This document shows, one piece after another, positions 1,940 to 56,302 of a DNA stretch of 64,000 nucleotides. Source of the stretch: Haladaptatus sp. QDMS2 (GTDB lineage: Archaea; Halobacteriota; Halobacteria; Halobacteriales; Halococcaceae). The notes under the pieces were generated by a model. It made no database searches and was not told the origin of the DNA. It was given only the letters and a program-made list of their open reading frames with translations. The first letter of the stretch is position 1. Each line of letters begins with the position of its first letter. A program made the position numbers and the translations under genes. The stretch lies in the NCBI RefSeq assembly GCF_029338295.1, contig NZ_CP119791.1:2542001-2606000 (forward strand), in the 5' to 3' direction.

Positions 1940-3613
<1,674 letters not shown>

Positions 3614-3630
3614 AATCAAGAGCGACTATA

Positions 3631-36331: not shown

Positions 36332-38008
36332 TCACATTGCGCCGCCCATACCGCCCATACCGCCCATGCCGCCCATGCCACCGCCGCCCGGTGGCATGTC
36401 CATGTCGTCGTCGTCGCCGTCGACCTGGCCGCCGGAGAGGTCGCCTGCGGCGATGACGTCGTCGATGCGGAGGATCATGACCGCGGCTTCGGTTGCGGAT
36501 TCGATGGCCTGCGTCTTGACGCGGAGTGGCTCCACGACGCCTTCGGCTTGCATGTCGATGATGTCGCCGGTGTAAGCGTCGAGACCCGTCGTCGTCTCGC
36601 CTGCGTCGTGCTTCGAGCGAAGATTGACGAGACTGTCGATTGGGTCGAGGCCAGCGTTCTCTGCGAGGGTGCGTGGGATGACGTCGATTGCGTCTGCGAA
36701 CGCCTCGACGGCGAGCTGCTCGCGGCCGCCGACGGAGTCGGCGTAGTCGCGCAGACCGAGGGCGAGTTCCGTCTCCGGAGCCGCGCCGCCGGGCAGGACT
36801 TTGCCGTCTTCGAGCGTGACGCGAACGACGCCGAGGGAGTCCTCGATGGCGCGCTCGACTTCGTCGACGACGTGCTCGGTGCCGCCGCGGAGAATCAGCG
36901 TGACGGACTTCGCTTCCTTCACGTCCTCGACGAAGATGCGGTCCTTGCCGCCGACGTCGCGCTGGGCGACGGAACCGGCGTAGCCGAGGTCCGCTTCCTC
37001 GATGTCCTCTAAGTTCGAGACGACGCGAGCTCCCGTCGCGCGAGCGAGGCGCTTGATGTCGGACTTCTTGACCCGGCGGGCCGCGAGGATGCCTTCCTTC
37101 GCGAGGTAGTGCTGGGCCATGTCGTCGATGCCCTTCTGGCAGAAGACGACGTCAGCGCCGACGGCTTTGAGCTTGTCGACCATCTCCTTCAGTTGCTTCT
37201 CTTCCTGGTCTAGGAACTGCTGGAGCTGGGCCGGGTCGGTGACGTTGACTTCGGCGTCGATTTCCGTCTCCTTGATTTCGAGGGCCTGGTCGAGAACTGC
37301 GACGTTCGCGTCCTCGACGCTGTACGGCATGTTGTCGTGGACGCGCTCTTTCGAGATGATGACGCCCTCGACGAGTTCGGACTCGTCGATGGAGCCGCCG
37401 ACGACCTTCTCGACTTTGATGTTGTCCGTGTCGATACCGTCCTCGTCTGCGACGGCGCGAACGGCGTCGACGACGAGCTTCGAGAGCGTGTCCTTCGCGC
37501 TCTCTGCGCCCTTGCCGGTCATCGCGGTCGCGGCAATCTGGGTGAGAATCTCCTCGTCGTCCTCGGAGACGTCGATGGCGATGTTCTCGAGAATCTCCTT
37601 GGACTTGGCTGCGGCCTGGCGGTACCCCTGTGCGAGCGTGGTCGCGTGGATGTCCTGCTCTAAGAGGTCCTCGGCCTGCTGGAGGAGGCCGCCCGTGATG
37701 ACGACGGCTGTGGTCGTCCCGTCACCGACTTCGTCCTCCTGAGTCTGGGCGACTTCGACGATCATGTTCGCCGCCGGGTGTTCGATGTCCATCTCTTTGA
37801 GGATGGTGACGCCGTCGTTCGTGACGACGACCGAGCCCATCGAATCGACGAGCATCTTGTCCATCCCTTTCGGGCCGAGTGTCGTGCGTACCGCCTCGGC
37901 GACCGCCTTGCCGGCGGTGATGTTCATCGACTGCGCATCTCGACCTGAGGTGCGCTGGCTGTCCTCCGAAAGTACGATGAGGGGCTGGTTGCCCATTCGC
38001 TGAGCCAT
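36332..38008 (-). CDS. thsA: Thermosome (group II chaperonin) subunit
   Basis: This 558-residue chaperonin subunit is paralogous to the one at 1940-3613. TLGPKGMDK lies at residues 43-51, GDGTTT at 95-100, and a GGMGGMGG-type tail ends the protein. The linkage thermosome - KH protein - Rio1 - aIF-1A resembles the Haloferax thsA neighbourhood as I recall it, which is the basis of the A label. The two subunits probably co-assemble into mixed rings. The promoter box matches that of the other subunit. Confidence 0.95.
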
Positions 38009-54959: not shown

Positions 54960-55145
54960 ATGGTTAGCGTACGTGAATTATTGACCAAAAGACATTTACT
55001 CGGACTCGCGGTTACACACGGTGATGTTGACGAGTGGCCGACGAACCTCCCTCCAGGTTCTCGGTACCCTGGTGGGGACGGACAGATACGACACAGGATT
55101 GACAGCACAGTCGCGGTTCGCGACCAAGGAGTGCGTGTAGCATGA
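54960..55145 (+). CDS. Short leader-type open frame coupled to the downstream lipoprotein
   Basis: The 61-codon frame starts at ATG 54960, about 20-30 nt after a TATA-like box. Its TGA overlaps the next ATG in ATGA. The protein has no recognisable domain; composition is mixed, not clearly haloarchaeal. The exact overlap and promoter distance are its support. It may be a real small protein, a coupling frame, or chance. Confidence 0.35.
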   Translation: MVSVRELLTKRHLLGLAVTHGDVDEWPTNLPPGSRYPGGDGQIRHRIDSTVAVRDQGVRVA

Positions 55146-56302
55146 GCGACCAGCCCTCCAAGCGTGGTCCTCGACCGTCTCGACGACACCTGCTCGCGCT
55201 CGGCGCGTCACTCGGCCTCGCGGGGTGCATGGACATCACCTCCGGGTTCGAAAAGTGGCGACAGGACGGGCCTGCGACCACTTCGACGAACACCCCGGCA
55301 GCGACGTCGACCGCAACCCCACAGACTGAGACGGCCACAGAGACGGAGACAGAAACGCCCGAACCGGTCGAAGAAGCCGTAAACGGCGTCCCAATAAAGC
55401 GCACCGAGTTCACGTATCGCGAACTGCCCTACGAAGAACGTCCTCAGTTCTTCGGGCAGTACCGTGACGCGAAGCCACAGTGTGACAAAACCGTCTCACA
55501 GGTCAACGAACTGCCCGACCTCATCCCGGCGACGGTCGGCGACCACACCGGTCACTTTCCGCTCCGGACGACACGTTGGCTGCTTCGCTGCCTGCACTGT
55601 TATCGCGAAAGCGGAAAACAGGGCTACCTCGACCGCGCAGAGGAGTTCTCCCAGGCGCTCGTAGACGACGCCGCGATTGGCCCAAACGACGGCATCTACT
55701 TCTCGTATCGTCTCGACAAGGCGGGGTCGAGCGCCGACCTGAAAGCGCCGTGGTACTCGGGAATGTGCCAGGGCGTCGGCCTCTCTGCATACACTTACTT
55801 CCACGAGCTCACGGGCGACGACAAGTACCTGGACTTAGCAGAGCGGGTGTTCCAGACGTTCAAGTCCGTAAAGCGGACCACTGACGGCCCGTGGACGACG
55901 ATGGTCGACCCAAACGGCTACTACTGGGTCGAGGAGTATCCCTTCGAACCGCCGACGCACGTTATAAACGGCAAGTGTATCGGCATCTGGGGGCTGTACG
56001 ACTACTGGCTGCACACCGAATCTGCGGAGGCGAAGTTACTCCTCGACGCCACGCTCACCACGGTGCAGAACTACGCCGACCACTGGCGCGTCCCCGGTGA
56101 AGTGAGCTACTACGGACTCGACGGCTACCGGCGCTGGCAACTCGGCCAGACCGACCGGTATCCGGACCCGTACCGTGGCAACGACTACTACCACGGCGTC
56201 CACCTCATCCAGATAGACAAGCTCTACAAGCTCACCGGCGACGAGTTCTTCAAGCAGATGTGGGAACGCTACAAGTCGGACGACCCCGGCGACATGTCCT
56301 GA
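55142..56302 (+). CDS. Tat-exported lipoprotein with D-glucuronyl C5-epimerase-like domain
   Basis: This 386-residue protein has a twin-arginine signal with lipobox (RRHLLALGASLGLAGC), a Thr/Glu/Pro-rich linker (about 42-78) and a helical domain. Sections of that domain resemble the C-terminal catalytic domain of D-glucuronyl C5-epimerases: APWYSGMCQGVGLSAYTYF, GDDKYLDLAERVF and EEYPFEPPTHVINGKCIG, then IWGLYDYW. Eukaryotic members epimerise glucuronate in heparan sulphate. Here the likely substrate is a uronic-acid-containing cell-surface glycan, by inference. The linkage and substrate are not shown by the sequence. Confidence 0.8.
   Translation: MSDQPSKRGPRPSRRHLLALGASLGLAGCMDITSGFEKWRQDGPATTSTNTPAATSTATPQTETATETETETPEPVEEAVNGVPIKRTEFTYRELPYEERPQFFGQYRDAKPQCDKTVSQVNELPDLIPATVGDHTGHFPLRTTRWLLRCLHCYRESGKQGYLDRAEEFSQALVDDAAIGPNDGIYFSYRLDKAGSSADLKAPWYSGMCQGVGLSAYTYFHELTGDDKYLDLAERVFQTFKSVKRTTDGPWTTMVDPNGYYWVEEYPFEPPTHVINGKCIGIWGLYDYWLHTESAEAKLLLDATLTTVQNYADHWRVPGEVSYYGLDGYRRWQLGQTDRYPDPYRGNDYYHGVHLIQIDKLYKLTGDEFFKQMWERYKSDDPGDMS

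What the first reader, a model, noticed from the sequence alone, without database searches (positions are those of the whole stretch)
55142..56302. Archaeal Tat lipoprotein resembling the catalytic domain of heparan-sulphate C5-epimerase
The blocks WYSGMCQGVG, GDDKYLDLAERV and EEYPFEPPTHVINGK-IGIWGLYDY track the D-glucuronyl C5-epimerase C-terminal domain in order. A surface-anchored epimerase in an archaeon would change glucuronate to iduronate within a glycan after assembly, a modification not generally described for haloarchaeal surface polymers. No glycosyltransferase is adjacent, so it may act on a glycan made elsewhere.
Basis: partly seen in the sequence, partly recalled or inferred. Interest (0 to 1): 0.65.

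Follow-up and report, generated by a model that had tools for sequence, protein, structure and literature searches.

The report
Haloarchaeal surface-anchored glucuronyl C5-epimerase homologue

Summary
Window 55142-56302 (+) encodes a 386-aa Tat lipoprotein. Its catalytic domain matches Pfam C5-epim_C at E 2e-31 (109 bits, cut-off 23). The best solved relatives, by sequence and by fold, are human and zebrafish D-glucuronyl C5-epimerase (Z 25.9, against 16.3 for the next family). All five catalytic residues of human GLCE map with one offset to E265, Y266, N276, Y324 and Y350.

Two parts of the interpretation need correction. Iduronate in haloarchaeal glycans is already described, in the Halobacterium salinarum N-glycan, where it is made by Agl32, an unrelated-looking enzyme that acts on the lipid-linked glycan and lacks GLCE's catalytic residues. 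And this is no lone gene: one haloarchaeal clade, almost all Tat lipoproteins, occurs in about 4-5% of Halobacteria genomes, with two copies in the H. salinarum type strain itself. Bacterial homologues are already named 'D-glucuronyl C5-epimerase family' by PGAP.

Most likely mechanism: extracytoplasmic, polymer-level C5 epimerisation of a uronic acid, probably GlcA to IdoA, in an unknown surface glycan. Substrate and activity are untested.

The parts
55142..56302 (+). whole gene: 386-aa Tat lipoprotein of the GLCE (D-glucuronyl C5-epimerase, PF06662) family
55142..55228 (+). Tat signal peptide with twin arginine R14-R15 and lipobox L26-A-G-C29 (predicted lipid-modified Cys29)
   Evidence: sequence directly; conserved in 22 of 24 haloarchaeal members checked
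55229..55366 (+). Thr/Glu/Pro-rich linker, predicted disordered (model pLDDT below 50 up to residue 68), under weak constraint
   Evidence: dN about 0.64-0.74 against 0.16 in the catalytic part
55418..56287 (+). predicted mostly helical catalytic domain, residues 93-382, superposing on GLCE residues 167-610 (264 residues, 3.4 A, Z 25.9)
55727..56278 (+). Pfam C5-epim_C match, residues 196-379
55934..55939 (+). E265-Y266, equivalent to catalytic E499-Y500 of human GLCE
55967..55969 (+). N276, equivalent to N510 of human GLCE
56111..56113 (+). Y324, equivalent to Y560 of human GLCE
56189..56191 (+). Y350, equivalent to Y578 (general base) of human GLCE; followed by H351 and H354, invariant in the haloarchaeal family

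Best explanation
It is a polymer-level uronyl C5-epimerase of the GLCE family. The protein is exported by the Tat pathway and anchored by a lipid on Cys29, with a flexible linker holding the helical catalytic domain outside the membrane. There a tyrosine (Y350, the human Y578 equivalent) and a glutamate (E265, human E499), assisted by Y266, N276 and Y324, would remove the C5 proton of a uronic acid already built into a glycan and return it on the opposite face. The most probable conversion is GlcA to IdoA, acting on an exported glycan: a surface or exopolysaccharide, or an S-layer-linked chain. Shown here by computation: export signals, family membership, fold, conservation of the catalytic residues, purifying selection. 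Inferred: activity, substrate, product, biological role.
For: C5-epim_C E 2.2e-31. The best PDB matches by sequence and profile are GLCE. The predicted model (pLDDT 81.6, pTM 0.78; mostly above 90 in the catalytic part) matches GLCE first in Foldseek (E 1e-10, the next family at 8e-6) and in VIA-align (Z 25.9 against 16.3). Human E499, Y500, N510, Y560 and Y578 all fall on family residues with one numbering offset, and 19 of 21 haloarchaeal members keep all five. The PDB sequence of 6i01/6i02 carries Phe where 6hzz has the Tyr that aligns to Y350, as expected of a catalytic residue mutated to trap a complex. dN/dS is about 0.15 in the catalytic part. The gene and its neighbourhood are conserved in two same-genus genomes. 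The genome encodes a UDP-glucose dehydrogenase-family protein and a nucleotidyl transferase beside each other, so UDP-GlcA is probably available. In other carriers the gene lies with glycosyltransferases, a flippase and sulphatases, and near bacterial relatives GT4 glycosyltransferases are the commonest neighbours. Mechanism of human C5-epimerase: PMC12834895.
Against: No activity has been measured for any member of this haloarchaeal clade, as far as the held literature shows. The window gene's neighbours are housekeeping genes (RFC, MFS transporter, methyltransferase, TBP, HisG), so nothing local names a substrate. The GLCE beta-hairpin and beta-domain are absent, so substrate length and specificity may differ. 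PF06662 has very few characterised members, so family membership does not fix the sugar.
Confidence: 0.72

Rival explanations
1. Same chemistry on another uronic acid: the enzyme epimerises a different hexuronate (for example ManA or GalA, or a modified GlcA) in the host polymer, so the product is not iduronate.
For: The family is broad and little characterised; the haloarchaeal clade is far from animal GLCE in the tree and its identity to human GLCE is about 20-29%.
Against: All five GLCE catalytic residues are kept. One distant bacterial relative, from Bermanella, is reported to act on GlcA in de-sulphated heparan sulphate (PMC4432689).
Confidence: 0.18
2. It is a second epimerase for the N-glycan, overlapping Agl32.
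For: Halobacterium salinarum DSM 3754, of a species with IdoA in its N-glycan, carries two members of this family.
Against: Agl32 acts on the lipid-linked glycan before export, and in cells lacking Agl32 the GlcA at position three is not epimerised (PMC13308652; strain NRC-1, whose content of this family was not tested here). The window protein is predicted to be outside. The window gene is not in an aglB cluster: AglB lies at 1.20 Mb, the gene at 2.60 Mb.
Confidence: 0.1
3. It is a glycan-binding pseudoenzyme, or a helical-barrel hydrolase, rather than an epimerase.
For: Two relatives have lost catalytic residues: L004 has G-I for E-Y, L035 has K, S and F at three positions. GH47, GH76, GH88 and AGE families score weakly.
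Against: The window protein keeps all five residues under purifying selection, and no hydrolase family reaches its cut-off or comes close in fold score.
Confidence: 0.05

Closest known systems
Animal heparan-sulphate D-glucuronyl C5-epimerase (GLCE, EC 5.1.3.12; PDB 6hzz, 6i01, 6i02, 4pw2, 4pxq)
   Same: PF06662 catalytic domain, helical fold (Z 25.9 over 264 residues), residues equivalent to E499, Y500, N510, Y560 and Y578 in the same order and register.
   Different: About 20% identity over the superposed domain; no N-terminal beta-hairpin dimerisation domain or full beta-domain; Tat lipoprotein of an archaeon instead of a Golgi membrane protein; substrate unknown.
Bacterial D-glucuronyl C5-epimerase family proteins (PF06662; characterised member RED65_08024 of Bermanella marisrubri)
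   Same: Same family; relatives from Thermoactinomyces, Alkalihalobacillus, Balneola, KSB1 and WOR-3 keep the W-I/L-E-E-Y-P motif, and several show an apparent lipoprotein or signal sequence.
   Different: The haloarchaeal proteins form their own clade (SH-aLRT 98) and use Tat export. The Bermanella sequence itself was not compared here.
Agl32 of Halobacterium salinarum (archaeal D-glucuronyl C5-epimerase of N-glycosylation)
   Same: Archaeal; same proposed reaction GlcA to IdoA on an assembled glycan; helical domain only.
   Different: Per PMC13308652, Agl32 has none of GLCE's catalytic residues, resembles cellobiose 2-epimerase in fold, is encoded in an aglB cluster and acts on the lipid-linked glycan before export. 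The window protein has the GLCE active site and export signals.
AGE superfamily (cellobiose 2-epimerase, 3vw5, 4z4l)
   Same: Helical toroid fold.
   Different: Much weaker fold score (Z 16.3) and no Pfam match above cut-off.

Membership tests
GLCE / PF06662 C5-epim_C family | profile match above the curated cut-off | tested here: met
   109.2 bits against 23.3; the same gene is the only hit in its genome
GLCE / PF06662 C5-epim_C family | catalytic residues E499, Y500, N510, Y560, Y578 (human numbering) | tested here: met
   map to E265, Y266, N276, Y324, Y350 with one offset
GLCE / PF06662 C5-epim_C family | catalytic-domain fold of solved GLCE structures | tested here: met
   predicted model, Z 25.9, 3.4 A over 264 residues; next family 16.3
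GLCE / PF06662 C5-epim_C family | GlcA to IdoA epimerase activity on a polymer | not testable with these tools
   needs a biochemical assay
Animal heparan-sulphate GLCE (the specific enzyme) | N-terminal beta-hairpin dimerisation domain and beta-domain before the helical domain | tested here: not met
   the window protein has only a signal, a disordered linker and about 310 residues, mostly helical with a few short strands
Agl32-type archaeal epimerase | lacks GLCE catalytic residues; fold nearest to AGE enzymes; encoded in an aglB cluster | tested here: not met
   the window protein keeps the GLCE residues, is nearest GLCE in fold and lies 1.4 Mb from aglB. The Agl32 features are taken from PMC13308652; the Agl32 sequence itself was not available for comparison
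   GH88 11.5, GH76 17.5, GH47 20.9 and AGE 16.8 bits, all below cut-off; fold ranks below GLCE
Tat lipoprotein of haloarchaea | twin arginine plus lipobox Cys | tested here: met
   SRRHLLALGASLGLAGC; 22 of 24 haloarchaeal members alike

The most novel reading that the evidence does not exclude
Haloarchaea edit an exported, glycosaminoglycan-like polymer outside the cell in the same style as animal heparan sulphate: a GLCE-type C5-epimerase, in some species encoded next to an exported Tat-lipoprotein polysaccharide deacetylase, works at the membrane surface independently of the Agl32 N-glycan pathway, so archaea evolved or acquired two unrelated routes to iduronate.
Probability: 0.3. Interest if true: 0.68.

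Novelty: new member of a known kind. Interest (0 to 1): 0.45.

Why it matters
[quoted passage not shown] The window gene shows that haloarchaea also have a separate, exported family with the animal-type active site. Two copies lie in the type strain of Halobacterium salinarum, the species in which archaeal iduronate was discovered. If active, it would mean two unrelated solutions to the same reaction in one group and an iduronate-containing surface polymer not reported in the literature searched here. It would also offer compact, salt-adapted epimerases without the animal accessory domains, of practical interest for heparin-type synthesis.

Tried and rejected
A single-sequence scan of genome contigs found nothing; the alignment-based scan worked. 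NCBIfam gave no meaningful model, PHROGs none. Agl32 itself could not be obtained: the AglB contig of Halobacterium DSM 3754 ends beside aglB and contigs with other GT2 genes showed no clear candidate, so whether the window's organism also has Agl32 was not settled; its own AglB neighbourhood shows apparent GTs and a flippase but no evident helical epimerase (ORF inspection only, and one GT by Pfam). The PF13469 sulphotransferase search found nothing in the window's genome, its two congeners or the Halobacterium genome; since Halobacterium has known sulphotransferases, that model is simply not sensitive here and the result says nothing. A consistent gene neighbourhood for the family was sought and not found. 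No haloarchaeal plasmid carries a homologue in PLSDB. The GLCE primary papers and Raedts 2011/2013 are not held; from memory, Raedts 2011 surveyed putative prokaryotic C5-epimerases, so part of the prokaryotic homology may have been noticed before.

Full report
What is there. The ORF at 55142-56302 (+) is a 386-residue protein starting at ATG. It begins with SRRHLLALGASLGLAGC, a twin-arginine signal ending in a lipobox, followed by a Thr/Glu-rich linker and a folded domain from about residue 75. Pfam assigns C5-epim_C to residues 196-379 with E 2.2e-31, 109.2 bits against a curated cut-off of 23.3; GH47, GH76, AGE, GH127 and GH88 appear only below their cut-offs. It is the only C5-epim_C gene in its genome.

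Catalytic residues. A profile of 21 haloarchaeal relatives matches human GLCE 6hzz at E 2.2e-23. From that alignment, a single numbering offset of 90 places human E499, Y500, N510, Y560 and Y578, the catalytic residues listed in PMC13308652, on conserved family residues; in the window these are E265, Y266, N276, Y324 and Y350. Nineteen of 21 haloarchaeal members keep all five. The exceptions, L004 and L035, may be altered or inactive. An alignment that adds Bacillota, Balneola, KSB1, Zixibacteria, WOR-3, other archaeal and human sequences leaves E265, N276, Y324 and Y350 invariant, with Y266 nearly so.

Fold. AlphaFold2 on the family alignment gives pLDDT 81.6 and pTM 0.78, with residues 1-68 disordered and the domain mostly above 90. 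Foldseek ranks the GLCE chains first (E about 1e-10; next family, cellobiose 2-epimerase, 8e-6). VIA-align gives Z 25.9 for human GLCE over 264 residues at 3.4 A and 16.3 for the best AGE enzyme. The animal beta-hairpin and beta-domains are missing. The tools gave no coordinates, so the geometry of the five residues in the model was not measured.

Is the gene maintained? Two same-genus genomes carry 70-72% identical orthologues in the same gene order. Between the window and these, dN is 0.16 and dS about 1.1 in the catalytic part, while the linker is only weakly constrained. This is the pattern of a working enzyme on a flexible tether.

Distribution. Of 391 Halobacteria genomes sampled, 19 exceed the Pfam cut-off. 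Carriers named by the genome-contig scan include Halegenticoccus, Halocatena, Halogranum, Haloferax massiliensis, Halolamina, Halohasta, Halopiger and Halobacterium salinarum DSM 3754, the last with two copies. Of 24 haloarchaeal proteins checked, 22 have a twin arginine and a lipobox; of the other two, one lies at a contig end (L045) and one (L035) is a longer protein without a lipobox. In a quick maximum-likelihood tree the 24 haloarchaeal rows form one clade (SH-aLRT 98), which in the midpoint-rooted drawing lies among Bacillota, Chloroflexota and Actinomycetota sequences and apart from other archaeal and animal sequences. This fits one acquisition from bacteria followed by patchy loss or transfer, but the root is not established.

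Context. Around the window gene are DUF4382, replication factor C, an MFS transporter, an UPF0020-type methyltransferase, TBP, DUF7473 and HisG: nothing that names a substrate. Elsewhere there are hints. In Halohasta litorea (L060) the gene lies among several sulphatase-family genes, a polysaccharide flippase, a GT4 and a GT2; in Halobacterium salinarum (L056) it is beside two GT4 glycosyltransferases and an ABC transporter, and two neighbours are shared between these genera. Near bacterial relatives GT4 glycosyltransferases are the commonest neighbours (7 of 101 proteins; no background rate was measured). In L061 and L063 a polysaccharide deacetylase gene, itself encoding a Tat lipoprotein, is within 1 kb, and in L049 within 8 kb. 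These genomes carry roughly 40 full-length homologues of that deacetylase in about 66 Mb (my count), so about 0.25 would be expected within 10 kb of the 20 epimerase genes against 3 seen. That test was chosen after seeing the data and is only suggestive. N-deacetylation before epimerisation is the order used in heparan sulphate (PMC13308652).

What is known. IdoA in a haloarchaeal glycan is not new: the Halobacterium salinarum N-linked tetrasaccharide contains sulphated IdoA, and its epimerase Agl32 was identified in 2025 (PMC13308652). The authors report that Agl32 has none of GLCE's catalytic residues, looks most like AGE enzymes, sits in aglB clusters and acts on the lipid-linked glycan before export. 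The window protein differs in each respect. A full-text search for C5-epimerase with haloarchaea returned only the Agl32 group's papers, and the Agl32 paper does not mention PF06662. Public annotation already labels bacterial members 'D-glucuronyl C5-epimerase family protein', so the family is known by name; the exported haloarchaeal clade seems not to have been discussed in the held literature.

Mechanism, shown and inferred. Shown computationally: export and lipid-anchor signals, family membership, fold, catalytic residues, purifying selection. Supported indirectly: UDP-GlcA supply, from a UDP-glucose dehydrogenase-family gene beside a nucleotidyl transferase. Inferred: that Y350 and E265 act as the two acid/base groups as reported for human Y578 and E499 (PMC12834895), that the sugar is GlcA giving IdoA, and that the target is an exported polymer. 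I put the epimerase reading at 0.72 and the specific GlcA-to-IdoA product at about one half.

Verdict. The claim that the modification is undescribed in haloarchaea is not. The thing is a new member of a known kind, raised in interest by its export, by its apparent independence from Agl32 and by its presence in the type strain of Halobacterium salinarum.

Noticed in passing
L112:4529-5515, L099:72-965 (Halobacterium salinarum DSM 3754): The type strain of the species known for N-glycan iduronate carries two GLCE-family genes; the Agl32 experiments used strain NRC-1. Whether NRC-1 has them was not tested.
   Followed up: partly
L063:10429-11841, L061:7740-9254, L049:17748-19043: Tat-lipoprotein polysaccharide deacetylase genes beside or near the C5-epimerase gene in three haloarchaeal lineages.
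   Followed up: partly
L004:1471-2616 and L035:481-2034: Two divergent family members have lost catalytic residues (E-Y changed to G-I; K, S and F at three positions), possible pseudoenzymes.
   Followed up: no
L171:1125-7396 (Halobacterium salinarum DSM 3754 contig): A polysaccharide-type locus with three apparent sulphatase-like genes and several glycosyltransferases (by ORF inspection), similar in make-up to the Halohasta locus L060.
   Followed up: no
window 1940-3619 and 36332-38008: Two group II chaperonin (thermosome)-like ORFs in one window (by their N-terminal sequences), usual for haloarchaea.
   Followed up: no
L018 (G000:C1:292244) and G066:C1:932620: A second, distant STT3/AglB-like gene, in the window's genome close to UDP-glucose dehydrogenase and nucleotidyl transferase genes.
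   Followed up: no
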